Position numbers and translations under genes: made by a program. The notes under the pieces are model-generated. The model worked only from the letters and a program-made list of their open reading frames with translations. It had not been told where the DNA came from and did no database searches. From assembly GCF_900129615.1 (NCBI RefSeq), contig NZ_FQWI01000003.1, positions 248,001-312,000 of the forward strand: 64,000 bases of DNA, written 5' to 3'. This DNA comes from Pectobacterium carotovorum (lineage in GTDB: Bacteria; Pseudomonadota; Gammaproteobacteria; Enterobacterales; Enterobacteriaceae). Of this stretch, positions 11,115-28,527 are shown in pieces. The number at the start of each line of letters is the position of its first letter. Position 1 is the stretch's first letter.

Positions 11115-11364
11115 TCTGGCGTAAAAAATTATGCAGCGGTGGGCGTGACCGCCGAGTGAGCGGCATGGATGCCGCGAAAGCCAGTGCCGCGTCGGGAACG
11201 CGTCACTGGTGGCTCGATTAGCGGTCATGAACACCGATGGCATCGCGTAGCGACATAATTTAGCCAAAAGCCGGGGTTCATAGGGGGCTGGTGTTTGAGC
11301 CCCCTATGTCGGGCGCGTGCGACGAAGTAGCATGAGAATAACGGTATTGTTGCGCACGAAACGG
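11115..11364 (+). repeat. Dispersed structured repeat, copy A (short form)
   Basis: About 250 bp that align along their length with the reverse complement of 28170-28493. Shared blocks include aaattatgcagcggtgggc, gagtgagcggcatgga, acgcgtcact, tcatgaacaccgatggca and the closing cgcacgaaacgg. Stems visible here are an outer pair aaattatg/cataattt, the long-range pair tgaccgc/gcggtca, gcggcat/atgccgc, and catagggggct/agccccctatg. Several of these stems differ in sequence but remain paired in copy B. It sits 3' of mltB in sense orientation. No coding frame is credible across it. Confidence 0.8.
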
Positions 11365-11529
11365 TCTCTGGACCTGCATAAAGATGTGACCCAGAGAATC
11401 CTAATCCTCCCTTTGCCTCCAATTTTCCCTTAATCACCCTCAATACAATCCGCATAGACACCAGCAGTTACCTTATTGGACTATTCCTGCATAGGGTTCT
11501 TCCTATGGTGCAGCAAACCGAGGCGATGA

Positions 11530-12255
11530 ATGACAACGATGATGGTGGTGTTCCTGCTGGCTGGCGTGGTGAAAGGCGTGATTGGCCTGGGATTACCGAC
11601 GATCGCGATGGGATTGTTAACGCTGGCGATGCCCGCAGCCAGCGCGGCCGGGCTCCTGCTTGTTCCGTCGCTAGTGACGAACATCTGGCAGCTCGCCTGC
11701 GGCCCCGCTTTTCTCAGCCTGATTAAACGGTTTTGGACGCTGTTTGCCGGGATCACTATTGGGACGTTCTGGAATGGTTTGCCAGCGCTCACCTCGTCAT
11801 CGTCATGGACGAGCGCGGCACTTGGTGGCATTTTGGTGGTTTACGGCCTGTGGGGAATCATGGCGACGACGTTGCCGCAGCCGGGCCGTCATGAAATCTG
11901 GCTGTCGCCGCTGGTGGGTTACATCACCGGAGCTATCACGGCGGCAACGGGCGTCTTCGTGATTCCCGCAGTGCCTTACCTGCAATGCCTGCGGCTCAAT
12001 AAAAACGATCTGGTGCAGGCGCTGGGGCTGGCGTTTACCGTTTCTACGTTGGGGTTGGCGCTACAGCTGATGCAGGGGATTGGACTACAGGGCATCGATC
12101 TCTGGCAGTCGATGCTGGCGCTGATTCCCGCGCTGCTGGGTATGATGATGGGGCAACGCCTGCGTCACGCGATTAGCGAACCGGTTTTCCGGCGCTGCTT
12201 CTTCATCGGGCTGGTGGCGCTGGGCGGATACATGGCTGCACGCGGGCTGCTTTAA
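11530..12255 (+). CDS. TauE/SafE-family membrane exporter
   Basis: 241 residues and very hydrophobic, with about seven to eight predicted membrane segments. Family features are VVKGVIGLGLPTIAMGLL near the N-terminus and the internal repeat GYITGAITAATGVFVIP after the middle loop. Members export sulfite, sulfoacetate or related organic anions. The actual substrate is not evident. The start is the first ATG of MTTMM; no strong ribosome-binding site is seen. It converges with a LysR gene and overlaps its end by 4 bp. LysR regulators commonly control neighbouring TauE genes, but these two are convergent, so regulation here is uncertain. Confidence 0.88.
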   Translation: MTTMMVVFLLAGVVKGVIGLGLPTIAMGLLTLAMPAASAAGLLLVPSLVTNIWQLACGPAFLSLIKRFWTLFAGITIGTFWNGLPALTSSSSWTSAALGGILVVYGLWGIMATTLPQPGRHEIWLSPLVGYITGAITAATGVFVIPAVPYLQCLRLNKNDLVQALGLAFTVSTLGLALQLMQGIGLQGIDLWQSMLALIPALLGMMMGQRLRHAISEPVFRRCFFIGLVALGGYMAARGLL

Positions 12256-13145
12256 GCCGCATTCTCTTCTGTAATAAAAGCCACGAAATCCTGAACATAG
12301 CCGGGCAGTGCGGAAAACTGGCGGGCGCAGACCACCAGATTACGCGTCGCCCAGTCGTCTGACAGCGGGATCGTGCGAATCGCCAGCCGTTCCATCATGC
12401 GCTGTGCGGCATGTCGCGGAAGAATGCCAATGCCGATACCGCTGTGAATCACCTGCGTGACGGCATCGAAGCTGGCAAGACGCACGCGGTAATTCAGGCG
12501 TTTTCCCAGCCTTTTGGCGTGCTCGTCGATGTGTTCCTGCAAGGCCGCGCCTTCGCTAAGCCCGATAAATTCGGCGTCGGCAATGGCGGAAAAGGTGAGC
12601 TGCTGTGCATCAGACCACATGCTGTCACGGGGAACCACAACGACCAGCTCGTCCTGACGGAACGGACGCGTTTCCAGTCCGTCGAGCGGCACGGAATCGG
12701 CGACAATACCAATATCGGCGGTTTGATTACGGATAGCGCTGACGATATCACGGCTGAGTTTTTCATTCACCGCGACGGATATCTGCGGGAAAATCACTAG
12801 ATAGCGACCCAGCAGGGCAGGCAAATATTCATTCAGCGCCGCCGAGTTGCACAGCAGCGGAATATGGCCGCGCAGCCCTTTGCTGTACTGGTGTAATTCG
12901 CTGCGCATATGTTCGACCTGACGCAGGATAATGTGGGCATGGTGCGCCAGCGAAAAGCCCGCGTCGGTGAGCGAGACACCTGCCTTTGAGCGCAGCAGCA
13001 GTGGTACGCCAAGTTCATCTTCCATTCCCCGGATTCGTTCGCTGGCAGCCTGCACGGTCAGGCTGGACGCCGCTGCGCCACCGGTAATGCTGCCTGCTTT
13101 CTGAATATTGAGAAACAGCCGGAGATCGGTTAAATCGAATCGCAT
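12252..13145 (-). CDS. LysR-family transcriptional regulator
   Basis: 297 residues. The N-terminal winged helix-turn-helix covers about residues 1-60, with LTDLRLFLNIQKAGSITGGAAASSLTVQAASERIRGMEDELGVPLLLR. The C-terminal periplasmic-binding-like effector domain includes ADIGIVADSV, VVVVPRDS and GIGIGILPRHAA. The ligand is unknown. It is convergent with the TauE-family exporter gene (4-bp overlap). About 80 bp separate its start from the sia cassette's last gene on the same strand, so it may be transcribed separately. Confidence 0.93.
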   Translation of the reverse strand: MRFDLTDLRLFLNIQKAGSITGGAAASSLTVQAASERIRGMEDELGVPLLLRSKAGVSLTDAGFSLAHHAHIILRQVEHMRSELHQYSKGLRGHIPLLCNSAALNEYLPALLGRYLVIFPQISVAVNEKLSRDIVSAIRNQTADIGIVADSVPLDGLETRPFRQDELVVVVPRDSMWSDAQQLTFSAIADAEFIGLSEGAALQEHIDEHAKRLGKRLNYRVRLASFDAVTQVIHSGIGIGILPRHAAQRMMERLAIRTIPLSDDWATRNLVVCARQFSALPGYVQDFVAFITEENAA

Positions 13146-13223
13146 AGGGGATCTGTCTCGGAGGAGCTGATACCCACTATTATGGTTGTGAGTCTGGGCG
13201 ACGGCAATCGCCCGGCCTGAGAC

Positions 13224-13931
13224 TTACTGAAATTCCACTCGATTTCTGCCTTTTTCCTTTGCCTGATAGAGCGCGGCATCCGCGGCACCGTAGAGCGCAT
13301 CAAAGCGGGTTTTCTGCGGTGCCCAACTGACGCCGAAGCTGGCGGTGACGCGCTGTTGTGGCAACACGCTGAGCGGCATTCTGTTGAGATCCTGATGAAG
13401 ACGGCTGGCGAGCGAGACGGCCTGCATGAGCGTATGCCCTTCCAGCAGGATGGTGAACTCTTCACCGCCGACGCGGCCAATGCTGCTCGTGGTATTCAGA
13501 ATCTGTTGCACGCGTGAAACCAGATCGCAGATCACGGCATCGCCGGTAGGGTGACCATAGGTATCATTCACCTGCTTGAAATGATCGATATCCAGCACGA
13601 TGAGCGCGGCCTGATTACGCTCCAGCGCGTGGTTAATGTGTTCAATAATCGCGCCACGGTTATACACGCTGGTTAACGGATCGTGGCTGGCTTTGTACTC
13701 CAGCTCGACTGCCAACTGATTGAGCTGTGCGTTCAGACGGTTCAGCTCTTTCTCCGCCCGGTCGCTGCGTGAAATCAGACGGTGCGACTCGCGTACCAGC
13801 CGCTGATAGTGGTCGGTTAACGCCAGCAGCGTGTCGCGATAGACTTCGGCTGGCCTTTCCTGCTGGTTAGCGATGTTGCGCGCGGCGAGCAGAATGTCGT
13901 ATTCCGGTGTAAACAATTCAATTGTGCTCAT
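13224..13931 (-). CDS. siaD: SiaD-like GGDEF diguanylate cyclase
   Basis: About 235 residues. An N-terminal helical/coiled-coil segment (to about residue 80, ending KELNRLNAQLNQLAVELE) leads into a GGDEF domain with DPLTSVYNRGAI, LIVLDIDHFKQVNDTYGH and the active-site motif RVGGEEF. It should make c-di-GMP from GTP. No RxxD inhibitory site appears at the usual place just before GGEEF. I chose ATG 13931 over the upstream GTG 13940. Its start overlaps the end of siaC, so the genes are probably translationally coupled. In the Pseudomonas Sia system SiaD is switched on by dephosphorylated SiaC binding to the coiled coil, which matches this layout. Confidence 0.88.
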   Translation of the reverse strand: MSTIELFTPEYDILLAARNIANQQERPAEVYRDTLLALTDHYQRLVRESHRLISRSDRAEKELNRLNAQLNQLAVELEYKASHDPLTSVYNRGAIIEHINHALERNQAALIVLDIDHFKQVNDTYGHPTGDAVICDLVSRVQQILNTTSSIGRVGGEEFTILLEGHTLMQAVSLASRLHQDLNRMPLSVLPQQRVTASFGVSWAPQKTRFDALYGAADAALYQAKEKGRNRVEFQ

Positions 13932-14370
13932 GATTATCACTCAAAATTGTGCTGTGAAAGGTCAGGGCAGGGAAATCGATGTGAAGCTCTTCACCAAATT
14001 CTTCCGCAATGTCGTCGTCTTTGTCGTAATACCAATACAGTGCAATCGAGAGCGTCTGTTCAGCCGCCTGATTAAGCAGGTTGAATAAACTGAACAGCAT
14101 CTTGGTGCTGGAACTGTTGAAATAAATCAGGGAGACGTGAATGTCGATGCTCGGCAGCGCTTCATCCGGCGGCATCGTTTCCGCGTAGGTTGTTAACGCG
14201 TGCAGATACGCCTGAATCTCGGTGAGCAGCGGGCGATAAAACGCCGCGGCATTCTCAGGGTAAGATTCGCCGGAAAGATAAAGACGGTGTGTGTCAAAGT
14301 GAAAATCAACCGTCGGGGTACAGGATGTCCCCGAAATATGGAGGTTGCTTAGGGTTGTTATATTTTTCAT
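13918..14370 (-). CDS. siaC: SiaC-like switch protein (DUF1987 family)
   Basis: 150 residues. The core holds the pattern SIDIHVSLIYFNSSSTKMLF, in which the NSSSTK stretch (about residues 85-90) matches the phosphorylation-site region of SiaC. A conserved beta strand with LSIALYWYYDKDDDIAEEFGEEL follows. In Pseudomonas aeruginosa SiaC is phosphorylated on a Thr by the SiaB kinase and dephosphorylated by SiaA, and the unphosphorylated form activates the SiaD cyclase. It follows siaB with one base between stop and start and overlaps siaD by 14 bp. Confidence 0.87.
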   Translation of the reverse strand: MKNITTLSNLHISGTSCTPTVDFHFDTHRLYLSGESYPENAAAFYRPLLTEIQAYLHALTTYAETMPPDEALPSIDIHVSLIYFNSSSTKMLFSLFNLLNQAAEQTLSIALYWYYDKDDDIAEEFGEELHIDFPALTFHSTILSDNHEHN

Positions 14371-14371
14371 G

Positions 14372-14926
14372 TTAAATGATTGCCTTCAGATAAAACGTAG
14401 ATAGCCCCGTTGATGCATCGGCCCGAAACGTAAACTGGAGTGGCTCACTGGCATCACGCGCGACGGTCAATAACCCCATATCCGCGCCTTTGCTTGATGA
14501 CGGGGTTTCATCACGCAGAGAGACTTTGTAGGCGAGTCGGATTTCATCAAGCGTCATACCGCGCAGTGGCTCAAGACGCCCTCGCAACGTCTCGACATCG
14601 TCGGGGTGTATCGGATTGGCACACAACAGGAAGTATTTCCCATTTTCGTAACCCAAACACACGGAGCCATGGCGGACTTCGACGGGCTGATCGAGTGCGG
14701 TTAACGGGGCTGCGGAATAGCGAGTAATGTTCTGCACCATTTCGACGAACGTAGAGAACAGTCGGCGGCGAATGCCAGCAGGAAGCTGCTTTTTCTCCAG
14801 CTGTAGCCGCATAGTTTCGGCCAGTGAACTGATGATGTTTTGTGAAAAATAGCCCACGTAATACAGCGTGATGTCATGCTGATGTGAGGGTAAAAAAAAC
14901 TCGGTGTATTTGATGTTTGGCATCAT
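14372..14926 (-). CDS. siaB: SiaB-like anti-sigma/protein kinase family protein
   Basis: About 184 residues. The N-box-like stretch FVEMVQNITRYSA, with Glu and Asn placed as in GHKL ATPases, and the later GADMGLLTVARDAS, resembling a degenerate G-box, indicate a SiaB-type kinase. In P. aeruginosa SiaB phosphorylates SiaC. The frame opens at a TTG (14947) that overlaps siaA, but the ATG at 14926, preceded by CAGGCAG, is the better start; this leaves 13 bp to the siaA stop. It is the second gene of the four-gene cassette. Confidence 0.83.
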   Translation of the reverse strand: MMPNIKYTEFFLPSHQHDITLYYVGYFSQNIISSLAETMRLQLEKKQLPAGIRRRLFSTFVEMVQNITRYSAAPLTALDQPVEVRHGSVCLGYENGKYFLLCANPIHPDDVETLRGRLEPLRGMTLDEIRLAYKVSLRDETPSSSKGADMGLLTVARDASEPLQFTFRADASTGLSTFYLKAII

Positions 14927-14939
14927 TCTGTCTGCCTGA

Positions 14940-16184
14940 TTAAACAAAAGTCGAACAATGTCGGAAGCCCCAAAATGTTAAATCGTCTCGCCGGGTCTGA
15001 TCGCCCTGGTAGATCTTGTGTGCCGACAGGAGCTGGTTAGCCAGTTCGCGCATCGGCTGGTGTTGATGGTGCTGGAGGTACTCCTGTAGGCGACGTTTAC
15101 CAAACATAATCCGGCGTTCCCCGCCGATTTGATCCGTCAAGCCATCCGTGGTGGTGAAAAACATATCGTTGTCATGAAGCGGCAATTCATAGCTCGACCA
15201 CTGATAGTCATAAGGCGTTTCGGTGTAGCCGACTCCCATACGATCGCACTGGAGTGGCGTCAGCTGTCCGGTCTGGCGTTGCAGCATGAAGGCGGGCATG
15301 CGCGCACCGGAAAACGTCAGCGTGTTTCGCGTCATATCGCAGAACACCAGCATCGCGTCACAGCCGTCGTTAGAGGTGGAAAGCTGACGCGCTTCGTCAC
15401 GCTGCCCCAGCGTATCTTTGATGTGACGGTTGATTGCCTGTAATAACTGGGCTGGCAGCATCGGGCCGTGCTGTGTCAGCGCCTGTTCCAGCGCGGAAGA
15501 GAAAATCAGCGTCATAAATGCGCCGGGTACGCCGTGCCCGGTACAGTCCGCGACAGCGGCAAGCCAGCCGTTCTGATAGGTTTTAAAGGCATAACAGTCG
15601 CCGCCGACACAGTCTCGCGGTTCCCAGGCTAAACACCAGTCGGCCAGCGTGCGGGACATCGCCTGTGTTGACGTCGTCAGCATCGCCGTCTGAATCACGC
15701 TGGCATATTCGATGCTTTGCATAATTTGCTGATGCTGGCGCAGGTGCATATCGGAGACGGCCTTGATCAGATCGATGCCGAGTCCGATACCGATATAACG
15801 CCCGTTCTCGGTGATCATAAAGCCGTCCGTCAGCGATTTATCACCGGTAATCACCGTTTGATCGGCAACGTCGTTCAACGACGCCAGCGCATCGACAATC
15901 AGCGGGTTTTTATCCATAAACGCGATGCAGCTCTTTTTGTCGTACAGTTCGCGATAAAAAGGCCGGGACATTTGCGAGAGAAAAATATGGCGGTTGATGA
16001 GGCCGAAAGGGCGTCCATCCTCAACGACAGGCAGGCTGACCCACTCTTTATTCTTACTGAACAGCTGCAATACGGTGGCATTGTCGGTGTCAGGAGAAAC
16101 GTCCGGCAGATGAATGCAAAGATCTCGCGCCACCGGTGTACCCCGGAGGAGTGGTCGGGCGCAAGGAACGGGCATGGCGGTCAT
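14940..16184 (-). CDS. siaA: SiaA-like SpoIIE-type phosphatase with CBS-like N-terminus
   Basis: 414 residues. The C-terminal 240 residues are a PP2C/SpoIIE phosphatase: WEPRDCVGGDCYAF, VADCTGHGVPGAFMTLIFS, DAMLVFCDM, and TTDGLTDQIGG with the metal-binding Asp residues. The N-terminal 160 residues lack membrane segments and look like a CBS pair or related sensor (SLPVVEDGRPFGLINRH, DGFMITENGRYIGIG). This differs from the membrane-anchored Pseudomonas SiaA, whose sensor domain is extracytoplasmic. It probably dephosphorylates SiaC and so raises c-di-GMP synthesis by SiaD. It is the first gene of the cassette. Confidence 0.87.
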   Translation of the reverse strand: MTAMPVPCARPLLRGTPVARDLCIHLPDVSPDTDNATVLQLFSKNKEWVSLPVVEDGRPFGLINRHIFLSQMSRPFYRELYDKKSCIAFMDKNPLIVDALASLNDVADQTVITGDKSLTDGFMITENGRYIGIGLGIDLIKAVSDMHLRQHQQIMQSIEYASVIQTAMLTTSTQAMSRTLADWCLAWEPRDCVGGDCYAFKTYQNGWLAAVADCTGHGVPGAFMTLIFSSALEQALTQHGPMLPAQLLQAINRHIKDTLGQRDEARQLSTSNDGCDAMLVFCDMTRNTLTFSGARMPAFMLQRQTGQLTPLQCDRMGVGYTETPYDYQWSSYELPLHDNDMFFTTTDGLTDQIGGERRIMFGKRRLQEYLQHHQHQPMRELANQLLSAHKIYQGDQTRRDDLTFWGFRHCSTFV

Positions 16185-16250
16185 GGTTAATCTTTGGGCG
16201 TATTTATCTTTAAGTCAAAATACCTGCCCTTGATGACCAAATGATGACAG

Positions 16251-16373
16251 CCCCCGTCATACTTCAAGCCGCAGATGCGTTGGCTTCCCTTACTCACCCC
16301 AGTCACTTACCGGTGTAAGCTCCTGGGGATTCGCGCGGTTGCCGCCTTCCTGCAACTCGAATTATTTAGGGGG
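16251..16373. repeat. Dispersed enterobacterial repeat, long copy (MITE-like)
   Basis: Ends are cgtcatacttcaag and aactcgaattatttaggg, the same ends found at 55743-55803 and, reversed, at 46932-46992. The middle is about 60 bp longer than in the other copies. It lies between siaA and the lipoprotein hydrolase gene. Confidence 0.75.
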
Positions 16374-16379
16374 CTCGTG

Positions 16380-17573
16380 CTATTGCGTGTGCAGGACGTT
16401 GGCCATGATCTGATTTTGCCAGTCGAAATACGGGTTAAAGGTCAGGCGCACATGGGTTTTGCCATTTTCCACGTATCCCCAATCGGAATACCACAGCGTG
16501 CTGCGATCCTGACAGATTTTCAGGTCGTTCAGAGGTTGGCCGTTGGCGCAGATGACGATTGCCCCTGTTTTGCCGTATTCCTTATTGTCTGGCGAAAACA
16601 GGAGCGACATGTGCGAGAACTGGCTGATGCGCCAGTCGGGCAGCGAGCCTGTCCGCACCAACACGCGTGAGGAATGGATACCGGCAGGGCGATCGCCATA
16701 CCAGATCAGACGGCTGCGCGGGTTGGTAAACTGCTTATCGAACGCGTTGACAACATAAGCCGTATCAACGACGGAATCATGCTCTGCCAGCACGATTAAC
16801 ACTGGTTTGTCATAAGGCTTTTTGGCGAGCTGTGAGCGCACGCCGCTGCTGGAATAATAATATTGGGCGAAGCCGTTGGTCGGCACTCGCATATAGCGGG
16901 TTGCCAACTGCTGGGGATAGCCGGGGCGCGGCGGCATCAGCCAGTCGGTAAACACGGACAGCACTGGGGCCATGAAGTCGTATTTTTCGTTGGACTTAAT
17001 CGCGGGGGAGAACAGCACCAGTCCTTTGATTTCAGGGTGCTGTAAGGCGTATTCCAGTACCAGATTACCGCCGGTGGAAAAGCCGCCTAGGTAAACTTCA
17101 TCGACCTCTTTGCTGAGGATAGCAGCCTGCTCTGCGACCACCCTGCGCCAGTCATCGACGGTAACGTGCAGCAGATCGGAGGGGCGGGTGCCATGACCCG
17201 GTAGCAACACGGTTCTGACCAGAAAACCTTGTTCGACCAATTGCGGTGTCACGTCGGTGAATGAACCCGGCGAGTCACCCAGCCCGTGCACCAGCAAAAT
17301 GGCTTTATGCGGTTGGCCGATGGGGCGGGTTTCACTGGGCGTATTCCAACGTAATTCCAGCTGTTTATCTGTGGTCTGGAAGGCGCGATGCTGTTCTACC
17401 CAGCGCGTGGTGTCTTGCTGGTAACGCTCGAATGATGTTTGTCCTAATGGCGTGATGTCGCGCGGGCTGCTATTGCATCCCACCATGAAAAGTACGCCAG
17501 TGAGGGTGAACAAACCTGACATCACCCGTTTCCAGACTACCCACGAAACGAACCGGAATACGTCTATTGTCAT
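16380..17573 (-). CDS. Alpha/beta-hydrolase lipoprotein (lysophospholipase-like)
   Basis: 397 residues. A basic N-terminus and hydrophobic stretch end at a lipobox-like FMVGC (about Cys33), so it is probably a lipoprotein. The hydrolase core has the oxyanion region ILLVHGLGDSPGS, LLPGHGTRPSDLL, the nucleophile elbow GFSTGGNL with catalytic Ser, an acid near VLAEHDSVVD, and a late His (IHSS or FSHMSLLF). The fold is that of monoglyceride lipases and lysophospholipases; the substrate is unknown. GGAG at 6 bp supports start 17573, though Met18 would give a more usual signal length. It is a single gene. Confidence 0.83.
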   Translation of the reverse strand: MTIDVFRFVSWVVWKRVMSGLFTLTGVLFMVGCNSSPRDITPLGQTSFERYQQDTTRWVEQHRAFQTTDKQLELRWNTPSETRPIGQPHKAILLVHGLGDSPGSFTDVTPQLVEQGFLVRTVLLPGHGTRPSDLLHVTVDDWRRVVAEQAAILSKEVDEVYLGGFSTGGNLVLEYALQHPEIKGLVLFSPAIKSNEKYDFMAPVLSVFTDWLMPPRPGYPQQLATRYMRVPTNGFAQYYYSSSGVRSQLAKKPYDKPVLIVLAEHDSVVDTAYVVNAFDKQFTNPRSRLIWYGDRPAGIHSSRVLVRTGSLPDWRISQFSHMSLLFSPDNKEYGKTGAIVICANGQPLNDLKICQDRSTLWYSDWGYVENGKTHVRLTFNPYFDWQNQIMANVLHTQ

Positions 17574-17733
17574 TTATGCTCCTTGCCTTTTGGCAATATC
17601 AATCTGTTCGCTAACGGGATATGGCGTTTCGACAACACTATATCTGAAATTATTTATCATGCAGATTGCTCAACGTGCTGCGCTATAAGGCTTCATGTTA
17701 TACTTCAGACAAATTGGGCGTTTTTTCTGTCTT

Positions 17734-17746
17734 TTGGTCAGGCCAA
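17734..17746. promoter_or_regulatory. UxuR-type operator upstream of uxuR (autoregulation)
   Basis: ttggtcaggccaa has the TTGG...CCAA arms of the UxuR/ExuR consensus (AAATTGGTATACCAATTT). It lies about 40 bp before the uxuR start, which fits autorepression. Confidence 0.6.
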
Positions 17747-17783
17747 TATTACGATGGCCGATGTTGAATAAAGGGATGGCGGT

Positions 17784-18518
17784 ATGCGTTTATATCAGCA
17801 GATTGGCGACAATCTTCGCGCGGAAATTCTGAAGGGAAACTATCAGATTGGCGACCGCTTGCCTCCCGAACGTGATATTGCTGAAACCTACAACGTCAGC
17901 CGCAGCGTAGTGCGTGAAGCCCTGATCATGCTGGAGCTGGAAAAGCTGATTGAGGTGCGCAAAGGCTCTGGCGTTTATGTCATGCAGTTGCCGAGCGCGC
18001 AGGGAAAAGACAGCGTGGTGGACAGCGGCTATGGCCCCTTCGAGCTGATGCAGGCGCGTCAACTGCTGGAAGGCGAAGTCGCGGCGTTTGCCGCGATGCA
18101 GGCGACCAAGAGCGACATCGTGAAAATGCGGCAGGCCATTGAACAAGAACGGGCGTCGCTTGAGAACGGCAGCGTGGATGAAAGCGCCGATGAACAATTC
18201 CATTGCCTGCTGGCGCAGTCTACCCAAAACAGCGTTTTAGCCAATATGGTGTATGAGGTGTGGCAGGCGCGTAAACGCAGCCCCATGTGGCAGGGCATTC
18301 ACTCCCATACCGATGATTTCAGCTATCAGCGCCAGTGGCTGGACGATCATGAACAAATCCTGCGTGCCGTGTCTCGTCGTGATGTGAACATGGCGCGTCA
18401 GGCAATGTGGCAGCATCTGGAAAACGTAAAAATTAAACTGCTGGAAATCTCAAATGTGGACGATCCGGCCTTCGACGGCTACCTGTTCGAGTCCGTTCCT
18501 TCGCGTCTGGAATCCTGA
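17784..18518 (+). CDS. uxuR: GntR-family (FadR subfamily) hexuronate repressor UxuR
   Basis: 244 residues. The N-terminal winged helix spans about residues 5-70 (GDRLPPERDIAETYNVSRSVVREALIMLELEKLIEVRKGSGVYV). The C-terminal FadR-type all-helical domain has ARQLLEGEVAAFAA, DEQFHCLLAQSTQN and DDHEQILRAVSRRD, where the Asp/His metal- and ligand-binding residues lie. The overall sequence and the adjacent uxuA point to UxuR, with the closely related ExuR as the alternative. Such repressors release DNA when bound by fructuronate or related hexuronates. AGGGATGG precedes the ATG. Confidence 0.85.
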   Translation: MRLYQQIGDNLRAEILKGNYQIGDRLPPERDIAETYNVSRSVVREALIMLELEKLIEVRKGSGVYVMQLPSAQGKDSVVDSGYGPFELMQARQLLEGEVAAFAAMQATKSDIVKMRQAIEQERASLENGSVDESADEQFHCLLAQSTQNSVLANMVYEVWQARKRSPMWQGIHSHTDDFSYQRQWLDDHEQILRAVSRRDVNMARQAMWQHLENVKIKLLEISNVDDPAFDGYLFESVPSRLES

Positions 18519-18547
18519 TTCCCCCTGTGTTTCTCTTCCCTGTGTAA

Positions 18548-18587: not shown

Positions 18588-18679
18588 ATATCAGACCAAA
18601 TAATCCATTTCTGACTTTTCTCCTCACTATTTCAGCCTGATTACGCATGATGTTAGTCCAAAATGCGAATTTTTTGTGT

Positions 18680-21149: not shown

Positions 21150-21725
21150 GTGTTTTTCCTTGTAAATTAAACGGATATTTTTCTCTTTATTTATTCCAAA
21201 TAAAGAGGGAGTCCTTGCGCATCGAGAAGGATTATATAGCAGAGAATATGAAATGAATAATGATTCGACGAAATTGTTGAGGTTAATCAGATTATTTAAT
21301 TTAGTCTGTTATTATTTTATATTTAATTTTAATTCTAATTGATTATATTCTATTTAATTATTTTTAGAGAATTAATAATCATTCGGAAGGTTCTTATTAA
21401 AGAATAAGAAAAGTGAATGGTGTGAAGAGGCAAAAATCTTACCACTCACCTACTGCTGCGCGTGACGGGATTCGCTTTGTTTCTACGTTTCATTGATGTG
21501 CCATTTACTTTTCTGGTGATAATTTAATCATGCGTAAAATTGAATGCTTTTATGAATAAGCATTGAAATTTTTTATGTAAATGGACTTTTATTAATCTAC
21601 ATATTCATGTGCGACAACTTTTAGTTTCTATAAAGGCGTTTCATGTTTCTTAATTAAATAAAGAGAATGCGTAATTCCTTTTTAGTCACAATAAAATTGC
21701 GGATATCTATAAGGTAAGGTTTGAC
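21150..21725. promoter_or_regulatory. Divergent pel3-pehA regulatory region
   Basis: 576 bp, strongly AT-rich, with promoters for both pectinases expected. On the minus strand a TATAAT hexamer lies at 21231-21236, about 80 bp before the pel3 start. A sequence with one good KdgR half-site (gtttcattga, about 21490) is present, but I find no full KdgR palindrome by eye. No coding frame is evident. Confidence 0.55.
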
Positions 21726-22934
21726 ATGGAATATCAATCAGGCAAGCGAGTTTTATCATTATCACTAGGGCTTATCGGCCTGTTCAGCACATCGGCATTT
21801 GCTTCTGATTCTCGAACGGTAAGTGAGCCGAAAGCACCGTCTTCCTGTACGGTGCTTAAAGCGGACAGTAGTACGGCAACGAGTACGATTCAAAAAGCGC
21901 TGAATAATTGCGGGCAAGGAAAAGCAGTAAGATTGAGCGCAGGGAGTTCGTCTGTTTTTCTGAGCGGTCCGCTTTCTCTACCTTCTGGCGTGAGCTTATT
22001 AATCGACAAAGGAGTGACTCTACGTGCTGTGAATAATGCTAAGTCTTTTGAGAACGCACCGTCATCCTGTGGCGTGGTGGATACAAACGGTAAAGGCTGT
22101 GATGCGTTTATTACCGCGACGAGTACGACAGGTAGCGGAATCTATGGGCCGGGCACCATTGATGGACAAGGGGGCGTGAAGCTTCAGGATAAAAAGGTGA
22201 GCTGGTGGGATCTGGCTGCCGATGCCAAAGTGAAAAAGTTAAAACAGAATACCCCCCGGCTGATTCAGATTAATAAGAGCAAGAATTTCACGCTGTATAA
22301 CGTCTCTCTCATTAATTCTCCGAACTTCCACGTCGTGTTCAGCGATGGTGACGGTTTCACCGCGTGGAAAACCACGATCAAAACGCCGTCCACTGCCAGA
22401 AACACCGACGGTATCGATCCTATGTCGTCAAAGAACATCACCATTGCCCACAGTAATATTTCGACGGGTGACGATAATGTGGCGATCAAAGCCTATAAAG
22501 GTCGTTCTGAGACACGCAATATTTCCATTTTGCATAATGAATTTGGAACGGGGCATGGCATGTCGATCGGTAGCGAAACGATGGGGGTTTATAACGTGAC
22601 GGTCGATGATCTGGTTATGACTGGCACCACGAATGGCTTACGTATTAAAAGTGACAAATCGGCAGCCGGCGTTGTCAATGGTGTTCGGTATAGCAACGTA
22701 GTCATGAAGAACGTGGCGAAACCGATCGTGATTGACACGGTATATGAGAAAAAAGAGGGAAGTAATGTTCCTGACTGGAGCGACATTACGTTTAAGGATA
22801 TTACGTCTCAAACCAAAGGTGTGGTGGTGTTGAACGGCGAGAATGCGAAAAAGCCGATAGAAGTGACGATGAAGAACGTCAAACTGACGAGCGACAGTAC
22901 ATGGCAAATCAAGAACGTCACCGTTAAGAAGTAG
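21726..22934 (+). CDS. pehA: Secreted endopolygalacturonase PehA (GH28)
   Basis: 402 residues, the length of the characterised Pectobacterium carotovorum enzyme. The signal peptide ends near STSAFA-SDSR (about residue 26). The right-handed beta-helix contains the GH28 catalytic signatures NTDGIDPMSSKN, TGDDNVAIK, GHGMSIGSE and LRIKSD. It hydrolyses polygalacturonic acid in plant cell walls and leaves through the type II pathway. AAGGT lies about 10 bp before ATG 21726. Mosaic repeat copy C is downstream in the same orientation. Confidence 0.96.
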   Translation: MEYQSGKRVLSLSLGLIGLFSTSAFASDSRTVSEPKAPSSCTVLKADSSTATSTIQKALNNCGQGKAVRLSAGSSSVFLSGPLSLPSGVSLLIDKGVTLRAVNNAKSFENAPSSCGVVDTNGKGCDAFITATSTTGSGIYGPGTIDGQGGVKLQDKKVSWWDLAADAKVKKLKQNTPRLIQINKSKNFTLYNVSLINSPNFHVVFSDGDGFTAWKTTIKTPSTARNTDGIDPMSSKNITIAHSNISTGDDNVAIKAYKGRSETRNISILHNEFGTGHGMSIGSETMGVYNVTVDDLVMTGTTNGLRIKSDKSAAGVVNGVRYSNVVMKNVAKPIVIDTVYEKKEGSNVPDWSDITFKDITSQTKGVVVLNGENAKKPIEVTMKNVKLTSDSTWQIKNVTVKK

Positions 22935-23247
22935 TTCGATTAATAAGTTGTTTTGTCATGACAACGTCCAGAGCGTTGACAAATCTACTTGCAGAACGAG
23001 AACGGTGGTAATGGGATAGAAGAGTAAAGCGTCCGCGCCAGGGACAAAAACGTCAGGAACGTTTTTGAACGTCGCTAGCGACGGCCCTGAAAGGGTGAAT
23101 CTCAGTAATGAGATTCATATTTGCGCGGCTCGAGCTTACAGGGAGGTACTCGCAGCGTCTTTACGATCTACCCATTATCACCGCTCGACTCACTTTTTCA
23201 GCAATCACAGCACCGTTATTTATAAAGCGTGCATTGAGTGTACTGAC
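22935..23247. other. Intergenic region between pehA and the T1SS operon end
   Basis: Holds weak inverted repeats just after pehA (ttgtcatgacaa and caacg...cgttg, about 22955-22980) and mosaic repeat copy C at 23031-23133. I see no gene. Confidence 0.5.
23031..23133 (+). repeat. Dispersed structured repeat, copy C (hairpin-array part)
   Basis: Aligns with the central insert of copy B: gacaaaaacgtcaggaacgtttttgaac is nearly identical. Three hairpins follow in the same order but with different stems: cgtcgc/gcgacg (copy B cagcac/gtgctg), gccct/aggg (copy B gccc/gggc), and gaatctca/tgagattc (copy B gagcccca/tggggc). It ends at gcggctcg. It lies about 100 bp after the pehA stop, in sense orientation. 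Confidence 0.75.
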
Positions 23248-24417
23248 TTAACGTTCACGCAGCGCTTCATTGACCTTATTCAGCGGTTTAATCAGATAGT
23301 CCATCACGCTTTTTTGACCGGTTTTTATCTCCACGCTGGCGACCATGCCAGGTACGATGGGGAATTTTTCCCCGGCTTTGTTGGTCAGCTCCGCCTGCGT
23401 GGTGCGCACATAGATCCGATAATAAAACTGATCGCGCCTGACTTCGTCCTGAAGAGTATCGGGTGACACGCTTTCGACTTCGCCCGTTAAATTGCCGTAG
23501 ATGGAAGAATCATAGGCAGTGATTTTTACCGTAGCGGGCAAACCCGGCCGGATATAGGCAATATCGCGCGGGTTGATGCGCGTTTCGATCAGCAACTGAT
23601 CTTCCAGCGGCACGATTTCCATCAGCTTGCCGCCCGGTTGCAGCACGCCGCCCACGGTCGTGACCTGAATATCTTTCACAATCCCTCGCACCGGTGACGT
23701 GATGGTGGCGCGCTTGAGCTGATCGGCTTTCCCGCTGACTACTTCCATCTGCGCTTCCAGATCGGCGTTGTTTTTGACCTGTTCTTCCCGCGCCCGGACG
23801 GCGTATTGGTTGTTGGCTTCGTCGATTTTGCCACGGATTTCGCTAATCTGACGGCGTAACCGGATCACCTCGACGGCGCTGGCGGCACCGCGCTGCACCA
23901 GCGGCTCCGTCATCCGCAGTTCTTGTTCCACCAGCCGCATAGACTGTTGCAGGTTGGCGACGGTTTCATCGCGATTGCGCAAGCGTGATTCATAAAGCTG
24001 ACGTTCGCGTGCGGCCAGCGCGGGTTCCTTCATGGTTTCTGCGCTGAATTTTAGCGGTGCGCCGCTGAGCTCGGCGTGCAGACGTTCGGCGGACGCCCGC
24101 AGCGTCTGCACGCGGGAGAAGGCTTCGCCGTAGACGGACTGGAAGCGGTTGATGTCCAACTGCGCCAGCACCTGACCCTTCTCGACGACGTTACCTTGTT
24201 GCACATAGATCTGGCCGATAATCCCGCCGTCCAGACTTTCAATCACCTGTGCGCGGGTCGACGGCGTCACCTTACCGCTCCCGACGGAAACCTCATCCAG
24301 CACGGCGAAGGTGGCCCAGATAAAAAATACGATCAGCCCCAGCAGGCTGAGCCAGATAATAACGGAGACGCGTCGACCCTGGCGTTTCAGGTCATCATGG
24401 ATCGTGATGCTACTCAT
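23248..24417 (-). CDS. Type I secretion periplasmic adaptor (HlyD/LapC-like)
   Basis: 389 residues. A short cytosolic N-terminus is followed by one membrane helix (about residues 20-42), then the membrane-fusion-protein body: a lipoyl-like half IIGQIYVQQGNVVEKGQVLAQLD, a long coiled-coil hairpin (about 110-235), the second lipoyl half ITSPVRGIVKDIQVTTVGGVLQPG, and the C-terminal beta domain PGLPATVKITAYDSSIYG, then IVPGMVASVEIKTGQKSV, which is typical of type I adaptors. It should join the ABC exporter at 24428 to the TolC-like channel at 26606. It is the last gene of the minus-strand operon that begins with the giant adhesin. Confidence 0.94.
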   Translation of the reverse strand: MSSITIHDDLKRQGRRVSVIIWLSLLGLIVFFIWATFAVLDEVSVGSGKVTPSTRAQVIESLDGGIIGQIYVQQGNVVEKGQVLAQLDINRFQSVYGEAFSRVQTLRASAERLHAELSGAPLKFSAETMKEPALAARERQLYESRLRNRDETVANLQQSMRLVEQELRMTEPLVQRGAASAVEVIRLRRQISEIRGKIDEANNQYAVRAREEQVKNNADLEAQMEVVSGKADQLKRATITSPVRGIVKDIQVTTVGGVLQPGGKLMEIVPLEDQLLIETRINPRDIAYIRPGLPATVKITAYDSSIYGNLTGEVESVSPDTLQDEVRRDQFYYRIYVRTTQAELTNKAGEKFPIVPGMVASVEIKTGQKSVMDYLIKPLNKVNEALRER

Positions 24418-24427
24418 TGTGTTCCCC

Positions 24428-26566
24428 TTACGCCACGCTCTGTGCGGTATCTGCCGGTTTGCTGACCGCTTTCAAAATCTGATCACGCGGGCCATCAGCC
24501 ACGATGCGCCCGCCATCCATGACAACCACGCGGTCAACCAGCTTGAGCAGCGCTGGACGGTGTGTCACCAGTACCAGCGTGCGGCCCGTGAGCCAACTGC
24601 TTAATTGATGGATCACGTGGCTTTCCAGCTGTTCATCCATCGAGGCGGTGGGTTCATCCAGCAGCACAATCTGGGGATTTCGCAACAGCATCCTGCTGAG
24701 CAGAATCATCTGCCGCTGCCCGCCGGATAAACCGCGCCCGCCTTCATGAATGATGCGATCCAGACTGGAAGCATCCTGTTGGATCAGGCTAAGCGCGCCG
24801 CTAATGCGCAGCGCCTGCAACAGTTCCTGCTCGGTAGCGTGCGGGTTGCCGAGCATCAGGTTTTGCCGCAGGCTGCCGAAGAACAGGCGAGATTCCTGTG
24901 ACAGAAAACCCAACTGGCGGCGGACATCCGCCGGATCGATCTGGCTGATATCGACGCCATCAATGATGACCTTGCCGCGCGTCGCGGTCGCCTGATTGGC
25001 AAGCAGCTTGAGCAGGGTGGATTTCCCCGCGCCGACCTTACCCAGCAGCGCCACTTTTTCGCCCGGTTTGATCTCCAGCTTGCCGACCTGCAAGGCGGTA
25101 TCGCCCTTTTCGGGGTCGTAGCTGTATTGCACGTTGTGCAGTTGGAAGTGCCCTTGAAGGATCGGACAGTGTGCCATTTTGCCGTCTTCCGGCCGATCCA
25201 GCGGTTTTTGCAGGAGGTCATCCAGCCCCGTCATAGCGGTTTTCGCATGCTGCCAGCGGGAAAACACCATTGTTAGCTGCATGAGCGGGGCGATGGTGCG
25301 GGAGGAAAGCAGGCTACAGGCCACAAGCGTACCGGTAGTGATATCACCTGCCATCACCAGATAGCAGCCGAAAACCAGCATGCCAGCATAGGTGAGCTGT
25401 TGAACGGTCGATGCCCAGCCGCTGAGCCGTGCCCCCCACACGCGCTGCTTCATCCCGATGGCGGCGCTGACTTCGTGAGTTTGCTCCCACTGGCGCTGGA
25501 AGTAGGGTTCGGCCTGCAACGCCTTGATATCTTCGATCCCTTCGATGGATTCGACCAGTACCGCATTGCGCAATGCGCTTTCACGCATCCCTTCTTTGGC
25601 GAGCTTCGCCATCGGCCATTGCAACAGCAGGCCGGGGATCACAATCAGCGGGATCGCCAGCATGGGAATAAATACCAGCGGGCCGCCGATCATCGCCATG
25701 ATGCCGAGAAACAGCAAGACGAACGGCATATCAGCGGCTGCCCCGACGGTCGTCGAGGTCAGCAGTTCACGCACCTGATCGATTTCCCGCAGCTGCGAAA
25801 TAAACGAGCCGGTGGATTTCGGACGAGCCTCATTTTTTATCGCCAGTGCGCGGGCGAACAGCATACCCGACACGTTCAGATCGATGCTTTTTCCCATCAG
25901 GTCGGAGACGATGGTACGTGATAAACGGATGGCATACTCTAATGCGGCGGCCAGCAGCACACCGAAAAACAGCACCCACAGCGTGGGAATCGACTGCGCC
26001 GGAATCACTCGGTCATACACCTGCATGGAGAACAGAATCCCCGCCAGCGCCAGAACGTTACCCACGATAGAGGCCAGAGAGATTTCCCCGATCTGTCGTT
26101 TTGCGCCGCGAAAGTGTTGCCAGAACCAGTGCTTGCGGTACGGTTTGACGAAATCATCGATACGGGTATCGCGGCCGCGTTCCGCGATGCCGACTAGCAC
26201 GATAATCCCCTGGCTATGTTTGATGAGTTCCGTCAGTTCGGCCTCGCGCTGAAGATCGCCGCCGTCATTCAGCCAGTAGGTGGCGATGCCTTCGTCATTC
26301 AATGATTCGATGACGATAACGCCGCCGTCGTCAGTTTCCGCCAGCACCGGTAAGATCTTGTTGCGCCAGCGGAGCTTCTCCGTGTGTCGCAGGCTGATGC
26401 TCAATCCCATCAGATGGCTGATTTGTTCTAACTGGCGGGCTACCGGCTGCTGTTCGTACCAGCGCATCTGCTGGCGTACCGACTGGGTATCGACCACCTG
26501 TCCATAGTGGGCGGCGGCGCGAGCCATCGCGGCAATCCAGACTTCAGTTTGGGTGACTTTTGTCAT
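24428..26566 (-). CDS. Type I secretion ABC transporter (LapB-like)
   Basis: 712 residues. The N-terminal domain (about 1-130) is C39-peptidase-like but lacks the catalytic Cys, as in exporters of RTX and LapA adhesins that keep their substrates uncut at the N-terminus. The transmembrane domain has six helices (about 160-430). The nucleotide-binding domain has Walker A LLGKVGAGKST, signature GRGLSGGQRQM, Walker B IVLLDEPTASMD and the H-loop VLVTHRPALL. The likely cargo is the adhesin encoded upstream. 10 bp separate it from the adaptor gene. Confidence 0.94.
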   Translation of the reverse strand: MTKVTQTEVWIAAMARAAAHYGQVVDTQSVRQQMRWYEQQPVARQLEQISHLMGLSISLRHTEKLRWRNKILPVLAETDDGGVIVIESLNDEGIATYWLNDGGDLQREAELTELIKHSQGIIVLVGIAERGRDTRIDDFVKPYRKHWFWQHFRGAKRQIGEISLASIVGNVLALAGILFSMQVYDRVIPAQSIPTLWVLFFGVLLAAALEYAIRLSRTIVSDLMGKSIDLNVSGMLFARALAIKNEARPKSTGSFISQLREIDQVRELLTSTTVGAAADMPFVLLFLGIMAMIGGPLVFIPMLAIPLIVIPGLLLQWPMAKLAKEGMRESALRNAVLVESIEGIEDIKALQAEPYFQRQWEQTHEVSAAIGMKQRVWGARLSGWASTVQQLTYAGMLVFGCYLVMAGDITTGTLVACSLLSSRTIAPLMQLTMVFSRWQHAKTAMTGLDDLLQKPLDRPEDGKMAHCPILQGHFQLHNVQYSYDPEKGDTALQVGKLEIKPGEKVALLGKVGAGKSTLLKLLANQATATRGKVIIDGVDISQIDPADVRRQLGFLSQESRLFFGSLRQNLMLGNPHATEQELLQALRISGALSLIQQDASSLDRIIHEGGRGLSGGQRQMILLSRMLLRNPQIVLLDEPTASMDEQLESHVIHQLSSWLTGRTLVLVTHRPALLKLVDRVVVMDGGRIVADGPRDQILKAVSKPADTAQSVA

Positions 26567-26605
26567 TAATATTCCTGCATATTCTTATCCGGCAGGCGAG
26601 CCGGC

Positions 26606-28057
26606 TTACAGCGACGGTAGCGTCTCACCAGTGGTTTCATGGCGCTCAATACCCAGCATATCCAGCAGATTATCGACGGCAGCGGCATAGTTAACCGCCG
26701 CCTCCCAGCCATCGTATAACGCGCCGATGCGTGAGGTTTCAGCCTGCAATACGTCTTGCTCGACGCTGAGCAGATCGTTCAGGCTGCGCTTGCTGAGCTT
26801 GTACTCATCCTGATAGACGTTGCGGGTGTAGGTCGCGCTGGTAATTTGCTGCTGGCTGGCTTTTTCACGCTGCTGCGCACCGATGAGATCGGCATAGGCC
26901 GTTGAGGCTTTCTGGTTCATATCCAGTTTCGCCGCTTCGACTTCGGCCTGCGCCGCTTCGCGCGTGCCTGACGCCGCATCAACACGTGCGCTGACGGCAC
27001 CGCCCTGATAAAGCGGGGCTTCTACTACCAACTGTAGCTGGTCATCCCAGTAATTACGTCTGTCGGTTTCATAGCGGGTGCGACCTGCCTGCACGGCAAT
27101 GGTGGGGAAGTGCTGGGCTTCTGCCTGACGAATCCGGTGGCGCGAGGCCTCTTGCTTGGACTGCGCGCTCAGCACTGCATTACTCTGCTGGTATGGGAGC
27201 GCCTTGAGCGTAATCTTTTGTTGCAGCAGCGCGCGGGGCAGATCGGGCAGGGCGGTGGGGAGAACGCCGGTTAACACGCTGAGCTGTGCCAGTGAGGAAC
27301 GCTCCAGCGCACGGTATTGCTCCAGCGTTGCTCGCATACCCGCGATGCGGGTTTCCGCCTGCAGGATGTCGGATTGCGTACTGAGACCAGCCTCGGCGCG
27401 GAGCGTCGCGGTGTCTTTTACCAGACTGAGCGACGTGATATTGCGCTCGGCCGCCTGACTCAGTTCCTGATAGCGTTTGACTTTCAGGTAGGTGAGCAAG
27501 GTTTGCTGGCCGACCGTGGTCATGGTGCCGTAGAGCTGATAGCGGTAGGCGTCTGACAGGCTGTGCTGCTCATCAATGCTGCCGCCGGTCTTACCGAAAT
27601 CGTACAGGAGCTGTTTCAGCGTAAGACCCGCTGTGGAATTGTTGCTCATCGTGCCGCCGGTATCACTTTGATCTGATCGGCCGACATTGCCGCTCAGGCC
27701 GATTTGCGGGAACCAGGCGCTTTGCGCCACGCGCAGATCGGCTTCGCCGACGCGAATTTGCGCTGAGGCCTGTGCGATTTGTGGGTTACGTGCGAACGCG
27801 CGGAGAATAGCCTGCTTGAGATCCAGGCTATCGACCTGTTGTTCCGTTGGTGCGGCGGACCAGTCAAACGCGACGGCCTGAGCAAACGTCGGCGGGCTGT
27901 AGAGGAAAGGAAGTCCACCGCAGGCCAGCCCAAGCGCCAGCCCGGCCGTCAGCCCGATCTTCAGCACACCGCGCGACGTGTGATGGCGTAATGTACGCGT
28001 TAAAAAAGCGCGATTGCGCGGAAAAAACATGCCCCTGATAAAAAATGGTTTGTGCAT
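26606..28057 (-). CDS. TolC-family outer-membrane channel of the type I system
   Basis: 483 residues from ATG 28057 (the TTG at 28060 extends the frame by one codon; GGGG lies just upstream of the ATG). The N-terminus is unusually long and basic before the hydrophobic export signal (GLTAGLALGLACGG, cleavage near FAQA at about 62). The mature protein has the two OEP repeats: DLKQAILRAFARNPQIAQASAQIRVGEADLRVAQSAWFPQIGLSG and, in the second half, RIRQAEAQHFPTIAVQAG. Late residues include VYQDEYKLSKRSLNDLLSVEQDV. It should form the exit duct for the adhesin. 467 bp, including repeat copy B, separate it from the adhesin gene. Confidence 0.93.
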   Translation of the reverse strand: MHKPFFIRGMFFPRNRAFLTRTLRHHTSRGVLKIGLTAGLALGLACGGLPFLYSPPTFAQAVAFDWSAAPTEQQVDSLDLKQAILRAFARNPQIAQASAQIRVGEADLRVAQSAWFPQIGLSGNVGRSDQSDTGGTMSNNSTAGLTLKQLLYDFGKTGGSIDEQHSLSDAYRYQLYGTMTTVGQQTLLTYLKVKRYQELSQAAERNITSLSLVKDTATLRAEAGLSTQSDILQAETRIAGMRATLEQYRALERSSLAQLSVLTGVLPTALPDLPRALLQQKITLKALPYQQSNAVLSAQSKQEASRHRIRQAEAQHFPTIAVQAGRTRYETDRRNYWDDQLQLVVEAPLYQGGAVSARVDAASGTREAAQAEVEAAKLDMNQKASTAYADLIGAQQREKASQQQITSATYTRNVYQDEYKLSKRSLNDLLSVEQDVLQAETSRIGALYDGWEAAVNYAAAVDNLLDMLGIERHETTGETLPSL

Positions 28058-28060
28058 CAA

Positions 28061-28527
28061 TGACCCCTGTTTTCATCACGCTTTGTTTTAGTTCCTTTAC
28101 ACATATTTGTGCCGCTACCGAGGCAGTTTCGTTCTGTCTCTTGAACACGTATCTATGCCGATGCTGATGCCGTTTCGTGCGCGATAATGGCGCTATTTTT
28201 ATGCCATCTCGTAGCACGCGCCCGACTCGGGACGGCTCAAACGCCGTTCGCCCCGAGACCCCAGGCTTTTGGCGGAAATTATGCCGCTACGCGGTGCCAT
28301 CGGTGTTCATGAGCACGATTCGAGCCGCCAGTGACGCGTTTACTCGCCCCATAAATGGGGCTCGCCCTTCGGGCCAGCACAAGTGCTGTTCAAAAACGTC
28401 TCTGACGTTTTTGTCCTACGCGGCACTGACTTTCGCGGCCTCCATGCCGCTCACTCGGTGCTCATGCCCACCGCTGCATAATTTTTACGCCGGGTAACAG
28501 TAACACCTCATCATAAGGGGACTGTCG
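28061..28527. other. Intercistronic region between adhesin and tolC-like gene
   Basis: Mostly filled by repeat copy B. The remaining about 100 bp next to the tolC-like gene could hold a separate promoter; I see no gene in it. Confidence 0.5.
28170..28493 (-). repeat. Dispersed structured repeat, copy B (long form)
   Basis: About 324 bp. Read on the minus strand it follows copy A block for block, but carries an extra array of four hairpins between gtgccgcgt and aacgcgtcact. Stems that stay paired while changing sequence relative to copy A include tgagcac/gtgctca (A: tgaccgc/gcggtca) and ctcggg...acggc/gccgt...cccgag (A: catagggggct/agccccctatg). It lies in the sense direction of the adhesin-T1SS transcription unit, between the adhesin stop and the tolC-like start. 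Confidence 0.8.

What the first reader, a model, noticed from the sequence alone, without database searches (positions are those of the whole stretch)
11115..28493. Dispersed structured element with paired (compensatory) stem changes, three copies
Copy A (11115-11364), copy B (28170-28493, minus) and a partial copy C (23031-23133) align block by block. Several stems change sequence on both arms while staying paired: tgaccgc/gcggtca in A against tgagcac/gtgctca in B, and catagggggct/agccccctatg in A against ctcggg...acggc/gccgt...cccgag in B. The hairpin array in C and B shows the same: cgtcgc/gcgacg against cagcac/gtgctg, and gaatctca/tgagattc against gagcccca/tggggc. Such covariation suggests selection on folding of RNA or single-stranded DNA rather than simple repeat spread. 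I do not recognise it as ERIC, REP or BIME. The alignment is by eye.
Basis: seen in the sequence. Interest (0 to 1): 0.75.

Follow-up and report, generated by a model that had tools for sequence, protein, structure and literature searches.

The report
Dispersed folded RNA repeat, likely CsrA-binding
Two places in this stretch carry a repeat found about thirty times in this genome and throughout its genus, whose mutations keep one RNA fold intact; it is related to a little-known RNA whose looped GGA hairpins resemble docking sites of the global regulator CsrA, so it may be a spreading sponge for that regulator.

Summary
A and B are copies of one element (E1; core about 246 nt, 30 places in this genome, 25 of 25 genomes of the genus). 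C is a hairpin module (E2) inside an unrelated palindromic repeat (E3); E2 also sits inside B. Compensatory change is real: a structure learned from 24 own-genome copies pairs in 93.6% of cells of 58 cores, 57 of them from other genomes, with 493 two-sided changes against 150 by shuffling. No Rfam family passes its cut-off in the window, but an E1 covariance model finds Rfam's TwoAYGGAY RNA across Gammaproteobacteria, so E1 is a diverged branch of that superfamily. TwoAYGGAY is itself mostly multi-copy (24 of 34 positive genomes have three or more), partly in head-to-head pairs, partly with a 3' stem ending CGAAAC as in E1. E1 hairpin 1 carries A(N)GGA in 94 of 94 cores, hairpin 2 GGA in 92 of 94: CsrA/RsmA-type sites. 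All 34 TwoAYGGAY-positive genomes of 398 have csrA; 178 of 398 show none. Best reading: a dispersed, once or slowly mobile RNA element that binds RsmA. Fold and kinship are shown; expression, binding and the mover are inferred.

The parts
11119..11362 (+). Copy A: E1 core (244 nt), GCGTAAAAAATTATGC...GCGCACGAAAC
11072..11089 (+). Copy A: left end resembling the Tn5/IS50 end (CTCCTTATACACAATGTA); the resemblance is recalled, not looked up
11383..11398 (+). Copy A: degenerate right end (GATGTGACCCAGAGAA; ATGTGACTAAGAGACAG in better-kept copies)
11160..11175 (+). Copy A hairpin 1, loop AUGGAU (CANGGANG, CsrA/RsmA-type site)
11180..11213 (+). Copy A hairpin 2, loop UCGGGAA (GGA at 11195-11197)
28172..28490 (-). 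Copy B: E1 core with E2 nested in the hairpin 2 loop
28340..28414 (-). E2 hairpin module inside copy B
28134..28150 (-). Copy B: outer end on its 3' side (ACGTGTTCAAGAGACAG on the - strand), Tn5-like
22998..23184 (+). E3, a different palindromic repeat (GGTGATAATGG...CCATTATCACC type) that holds copy C
23045..23130 (+). Copy C proper: E2 hairpin module in the loop of E3

Best explanation
E1 is a non-autonomous dispersed element whose core is a folded RNA of about 246 nt: a long closing stem, a junction carrying two GGA-loop hairpins, and a 3' domain of one long hairpin plus a terminal stem ending CGAAAC. It belongs to the same superfamily as Rfam's TwoAYGGAY RNA, which the searches here show to be a mostly multi-copy intergenic element in many Gammaproteobacteria, partly in head-to-head pairs. 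Most likely mechanism: the RNA, made by read-through from neighbouring genes or from a promoter of its own, presents its GGA loops to CsrA/RsmA, so that each copy titrates or docks a dimer; many copies together act as a distributed sponge or as 3'-end control elements. Shown: the fold under selection, kinship with TwoAYGGAY, dispersal, GGA-loop invariance, co-occurrence with csrA. Inferred: transcription, CsrA binding, benefit to host or element, and movement by Tn5-like ends in one subset.
For: Fold. Kinship: an E1-only model hits TwoAYGGAY loci with E down to 6.7e-12; 33 of 42 sources (some overlapping) at E <= 0.001. In reverse, RF01731 scores E1 copies at 21-37 bits, below its 43-bit cut-off. 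Genomes of the same family (G492, G684) carry RF01731 copies over the cut-off; in G492, 3 of the 4 E1-model hits lie on RF01731 hits. Shared 3' end: a six-base stem ending CGAAA or CGGAAC downstream in 17 of 45 related loci, 3 of 45 upstream, 0.44 expected from shuffles. GGA loops: hairpin 1 A(N)GGA 94 of 94, hairpin 2 GGA 92 of 94 in E1; in related loci two or more GGA-loop hairpins in 41 of 44 against 9.4 in shuffles, two or more A(N)GGA hairpins in 35 of 44 against 1.7. CsrB element CAGGA(U/A/C)G and SELEX site RUACARGGAUGU: PMC7652899, passages read. Earlier motif-based proposal that TwoAYGGAY binds CsrA: PMC4333381, passages read. csrA in all 34 RF01731-positive genomes, 220 of 398 overall. 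Dispersal.
Against: No transcript or binding data were available. Hairpin 2 of E1 is usually UCGGGAA, not ANGGAN, and in several TwoAYGGAY copies it reads CACGAC without GGA. Stems of five or more pairs are stronger than most SELEX CsrA hairpins, which the same review calls a possible disadvantage. The csrA association may be confounded by phylogeny: 33 of the 34 positives are of one class, and of the 178 csrA-free genomes only 20 were listed, all of that class. 9 of 42 TwoAYGGAY sources were not found by the E1 model at E <= 0.001. Most related loci (28 of 45) did not pass the strict 3'-stem test. For mobility: 1 of 21 end pairs shows a convincing 9-bp repeat (L160, 8 of 9), no Tn5-type DNA-binding domain was found in 25 genus genomes, and no clean empty site was found.
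Confidence: 0.55

Rival explanations
1. The fold acts in single-stranded DNA: the element moves or rearranges through a folded strand, and RNA is incidental.
For: Dispersed, intergenic, with inverted ends. At one orthologous site the unit is inverted in another species, with breakpoints near the inverted tail TTTCGTGCGC/GCGCACGAAA (L027 against L256, core 96.7% identical). At another a different E1 lies the other way round (L034 against L251, L252, L253: the syntenic own copy ranks 19th to 21st of 21 to 23). 21 of 96 cores have an inverted 3' tail motif within 450 bp upstream.
Against: The whole interior is kept, not only the ends; the hairpin 1 loop keeps A and GGA while its other positions vary, as in a protein-binding RNA loop. 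By eye no transposase recurs next to copies in 84 named loci.
Confidence: 0.2
2. A 3'-end element (RNA stabiliser or attenuator) used mainly between convergent genes, without CsrA.
For: Of 41 loci that could be scored with a simple ORF caller, 25 lie between convergent genes, 16 between tandem genes, 0 between divergent genes. Predicted folds of -96 to -119 kcal/mol for the 21 copies folded (no shuffle control there).
Against: Does not explain the invariant GGA loops or the kinship with TwoAYGGAY. Tandem cases show no clear orientation bias (10 against 6). The gene layout is also what selection against promoter damage would give.
Confidence: 0.15
3. RNA of an RNA-guided mobile system (IscB/TnpB omega RNA or IS110 bridge RNA type), left without its protein.
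For: Structured RNA with a conserved terminal CGAAAC followed by variable sequence.
Against: HEARO, the Rfam family that I recall as IscB omega RNA, has no match in the genome at E <= 10. No nuclease or transposase was seen to recur beside copies (by eye). The one IS found in E1 (IS110-like transposase by eye, L112 and L119) is inserted in a hairpin loop and is absent from most copies.
Confidence: 0.05
4. Relics of a dead MITE family with no present function.
For: No Tn5-type DNA-binding domain in 25 genus genomes, mostly decayed ends.
Against: Compensatory changes across species and genera.
Confidence: 0.05

Closest known systems
TwoAYGGAY RNA (Rfam RF01731)
   Same: Junction with two adjacent GGA-loop hairpins in the same order, with the CGG..CG bases after hairpin 2; matches in both directions.
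   Different: E1 stays below the 43-bit cut-off (best 37), its hairpin 2 loop is not AYGGAY, and it has a defined 3' domain outside the Rfam model; the passages I read do not describe dispersal or pairing.
CsrB/CsrC/RsmB-type CsrA sponges
   Same: GGA in hairpin loops, CAGGACG and CANGGANG elements (CsrB element).
   Different: Two GGA hairpins per RNA in many dispersed copies, instead of about 20 GGA sites in one RNA.
Intergenic repeat families of Pseudomonas fluorescens (R26, R200 and others, PMC2718517, passages) and MITEs
   Same: Intergenic families of tens of copies up to about 350 bp; a bias to sites between gene tails is reported there.
   Different: No link of those families to TwoAYGGAY was tested here; E1 shows a conserved fold.
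Tn5/IS50 ends (recalled)
   Same: CTGTCTCTTATACACA-like left end and TGACTAAGAGACAG-like right end in a subset, at nearly fixed offsets.
   Different: No Tn5-type DNA-binding domain in 25 genomes of the genus; target repeats almost never seen.

Membership tests
TwoAYGGAY (RF01731) | Score at or above the Rfam gathering score (43 bits) | tested here: not met
   Best 37 bits among 8 own-genome loci; 31 bits at best in the whole-genome search; no gathering hit in the window
TwoAYGGAY (RF01731) | Two adjacent hairpins with AYGGAY loops | tested here: not met
   Hairpin 1 is exactly AYGGAY in 46 of 94 and A(N)GGA in 94 of 94; hairpin 2 has GGA in 92 of 94 but mostly UCGGGAA
TwoAYGGAY superfamily (homology, wider than the Rfam entry) | Covariance-model match in both directions | tested here: met
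   E1-only model finds RF01731 loci, 33 of 42 sources at E <= 0.001; 9 of 148 genomes of the order, 2 of them of the own genus; RF01731 to E1 only below its cut-off
CsrA-binding RNA | Binds CsrA/RsmA | not testable with these tools
   Only motif, loop invariance and csrA co-occurrence
MITE (Tn5-like ends) | Terminal inverted repeats | tested here: met
   For a subset: 21 distinct end pairs within 4 mismatches of the motifs at nearly fixed offsets; many other copies lack them; no chance control was run for the motifs
MITE (Tn5-like ends) | Target-site duplication | tested here: not met
   1 of 21 end pairs at 8 of 9 bases; the rest 0 to 5 of 9, as in mispaired controls
MITE (Tn5-like ends) | Autonomous partner in the genome | tested here: not met
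   PF14706: 0 of 25 genus genomes; other transposase families not searched
HEARO (RF02033) | Covariance-model match | tested here: not met
   No match at E <= 10 in the own genome
ERIC, REP, BIME | Sequence identity with the named repeat | tested here: inconclusive
   No reference sequence was aligned; copy A has no blastn match at E <= 1e-5 in the E. coli collection, where these three would be expected

The most novel reading that the evidence does not exclude
TwoAYGGAY-type RNAs, E1 included, are a superfamily of transposable RNA elements of Gammaproteobacteria that spread as intergenic repeats, often as head-to-head pairs, and carry CsrA/RsmA-binding hairpins as their conserved cargo, so that genomes hold tens of mobile CsrA sponges whose number and orientation change between species.
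Probability: 0.35. Interest if true: 0.85.

Novelty: new variant of a known kind. Interest (0 to 1): 0.6.

Why it matters
It ties an unexplained Rfam family to a class of intergenic repeats and gives both a testable job. If the copies bind RsmA, the dose of a global regulator of plant-pathogen behaviour would depend on a dispersed repeat. It would also make the function of TwoAYGGAY, listed without a function in 2010, directly testable with existing CsrA assays and CLIP data.

Tried and rejected
Rfam at permissive thresholds: only sub-threshold TwoAYGGAY, AaHKsRNA22 (over E2) and P11 (beside E1); the last two dropped as probable chance. HEARO: none. Plasmids, phages and E. coli genomes with copy A, blastn at E <= 1e-5: no match. 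Group I/II intron and hammerhead-like readings: considered from conserved bases by eye and dropped, no search. A linked transposase or nuclease: the families that recur in three or more locus groups were, by eye, open frames through E1 itself or ordinary genes. Tn5-type DNA-binding domain: none. Empty sites: the sites of own copies were mostly occupied in the genus; at one site two species carry E3 instead of E1 (L245, L246); the B site lacks E1 in two species, but the spacer differs too much to read a junction (L259, L260); a try between two relatives of another family gave rearranged flanks. IMG/VR pattern scan: 8 loci, not followed up; none is among the nhmmer matches printed. Literature: TwoAYGGAY (7 papers hold it, 5 listed), Pectobacterium repeats and sRNAs, Xanthomonas repeats, mobile RNA motifs, CsrA with repeats or MITEs, SBW25 repeats. 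Five papers were seen in passages (PMC2864571, PMC4333381, PMC2718517, PMC4383904, PMC7652899; the first two hold the term TwoAYGGAY), the rest as titles and abstract starts only; nothing seen describes E1 or says that TwoAYGGAY is a dispersed repeat. Only open-licence PMC was searched.

One search used 58 sequences: the window copy plus 57 of the 70 other-genome cores (12 dropped as over 95% identical or gappy; L075 left out by me because it holds an insert). In one search I passed 47 of the 49 matches (L208 and one L212 match left out), 2 of which fell out as duplicates; the repeat with a shuffle control took 44. The GGA-hairpin counts count any such hairpin in the match, not only the two of the model.
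Full report
What is there. Copy A (core 11119-11362, +) and copy B (core 28172-28490, -) are one element, here called E1. Blastn with B in the own genome gives 50 pieces, which I assemble into 30 E1 places and 7 places of a nested hairpin module, E2 (40 of 59 first-look candidates were scored, so this is a lower bound). Copy C is E2 lodged in a third, unrelated palindromic repeat, E3. The genome has 12 unbroken E3 copies and 4 split at the same place, all 4 by E2. In B, E2 sits in the loop of E1 hairpin 2; in C it sits in the GGA loop of E3.

Distribution. Blastn with A finds E1 in 25 of 25 genomes of the genus and in 0 of 34 other genomes, with 11 to 14 matches in each positive genome, only part of the candidates being scored. 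Two main E1 forms are seen by eye in the alignment.

Fold. 94 unique full-length cores give a consensus of nested stems. In my tree-aware test on 77 sequences, 10 column pairs are significant at E < 0.05; 8 lie in the consensus fold, in four helices, and 2 conflict with it. A structure derived from 24 own-genome cores, laid on an alignment of the window copy plus 57 cores from other genomes, pairs in 93.6% of cells; 46 of 76 pairs have two-sided changes; there are 493 two-sided cells against 150.1 +- 13.4 in 500 shuffles and 47 to 70 in slid controls. The closing stem itself changes in step: C-G replaces U-A at columns 15-143 in 14 of 58 sequences. G-U and U-G cells total 277, A-C and C-A cells 81; 73 of the U-G cells come from one fixed pair. 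This points to the + strand as the folding strand, as RNA or as single-stranded DNA.

Kinship. Rfam gives no match over cut-off in the window. At lax thresholds several copies match TwoAYGGAY, up to 37 bits against a cut-off of 43. In the whole own genome the three RF01731 matches at E <= 10 are two E1 copies and one E3 copy (places compared). A covariance model from 33 E1 5' domains, which contains no TwoAYGGAY sequence, hits TwoAYGGAY loci of other Gammaproteobacteria with E down to 6.7e-12; 33 of 42 sources, some overlapping, have a match at E <= 0.001. In the window the model finds A and B and nothing else below E = 0.1. Genus g258 of the same family bridges the two: its copies have the E1 layout, both loops of the A(N)GGA type, and a 3' end GTCGGTCGCC..GGCGAGCGAAAC.

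TwoAYGGAY is itself mostly a repeat. RF01731 is found in 17 of 274 genomes of the class and 34 of 398 of the phylum at E <= 0.001. At most 9 and 6 candidates were scored per genome; 5 of the 17 and 13 of the 34 reached that ceiling. In one search, 24 of the 34 have three or more matches and 10 have one. At least eight pairs in six genomes lie head to head within about 0.3 to 0.7 kb. Beyond the Rfam model several of these loci carry a long hairpin and a terminal stem that ends CGAAAC: a six-base stem with this end is present downstream in 17 of 45 loci, upstream in 3 of 45, and in 0.44 by shuffling. E1 shows the same layout: UCGGGCGCGUG...GCGCACGAAAC.

Likely function. Hairpin 1 of E1 reads A(N)GGA in 94 of 94 cores (AGGAC 31, AUGGAU 25, AUGGAC 18, others 20), and hairpin 2 has GGA in 92 of 94. 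In related loci two or more GGA-loop hairpins occur in 41 of 44 against 9.4 in shuffled sequence, and two or more of the A(N)GGA kind in 35 of 44 against 1.7. CsrB repeats CAGGA(U/A/C)G, and the selected CsrA site is RUACARGGAUGU (PMC7652899, passages). Gardner and Eldai proposed CsrA binding for TwoAYGGAY on motif grounds (PMC4333381, passages). In the 398 genomes, csrA is found in 220, and all 34 RF01731-positive genomes are among them (handles compared by eye); phylogeny may explain this. RsmA controls plant cell wall degrading enzymes in Pectobacterium (PMC3553148, search listing with abstract start). The best reading is therefore an RsmA-binding RNA carried by a dispersed element. Against it: hairpin 2 departs from the ideal loop in E1, and some relatives lack GGA in it.

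Mobility. 21 distinct end pairs keep both Tn5-like ends at nearly fixed distances; one of them (L160) shows 8 of 9 matching flanking bases, the rest 0 to 5. No Tn5-type DNA-binding domain is found in 25 genomes. Of 41 named loci that could be scored, 25 lie between convergent and 16 between tandem genes, none between divergent genes. Orthologous sites differ between species: at the L027 site the unit is inverted in G010 (core 96.7% identical); at the L034 site G024, G020 and G009 carry a different E1 the other way round; at the L016 site G009 and G006 carry E3 instead. So at these sites the place is kept while its content turns over. The mover is unknown.

Verdict. E1 is a new, diverged branch of the TwoAYGGAY superfamily, not a member by Rfam's own cut-off. 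CsrA/RsmA binding is the best-supported but unproven job.

Noticed in passing
window 22998-23184; L047, L245, L265-L272, L313-L315: E3, a palindromic repeat of about 100 nt with loops such as CCAUGGAUGG or CCAGGGAUGG and UUACAGGGAUGUA, the latter close to the selected CsrA site; 12 unbroken and 4 E2-split copies in the genome, and about 85% identical single copies on 15 of 17 matching plasmids.
   Followed up: partly
window 28340-28414 and 23045-23130; L010-L014, L039-L045, L313-L315: E2 hairpin module (GGACAAAAACG..) lies in the GGA loop of two different repeats and, in diverged form, in other composite repeats, three of which run into an ERIC-like stretch (ERIC recalled). Three E2 copies in E3 have an AGGGAU loop of their own.
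   Followed up: partly
L112:1165-2383, L119:4018-5238; own L011 and L036: An IS with an IS110-like transposase (by eye) is inserted in the loop of the E1 3' hairpin in two P. aroidearum copies; two own copies break off at contig ends with the same junction.
   Followed up: partly
L027 against L256; L034 against L251-L253: Orthologous E1 sites hold the element in opposite orientation, or hold a different E1, between species.
   Followed up: partly
window 23248-28060 and 28528-43122: ABC transporter, HlyD-type and outer-membrane efflux ORFs beside a 4864-aa ORF that was not identified: looks like a type I secretion cluster; copy B lies just after the large ORF.
   Followed up: partly
window 21726-22934: Glycosyl hydrolase family 28 ORF just upstream of E3.
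   Followed up: partly
L023:780-927: Sub-threshold match to Pseudomonas sRNA P11 (32 bits, E = 0.0005, cut-off 70) beside a head-to-head E1 pair.
   Followed up: no
L059, L067, L069, L073, L078, L111, L137 (JADMXW): An assembly labelled Serratia marcescens carries many E1 copies, some resembling the Symbiopectobacterium ones; possibly mislabelled or mixed.
   Followed up: no
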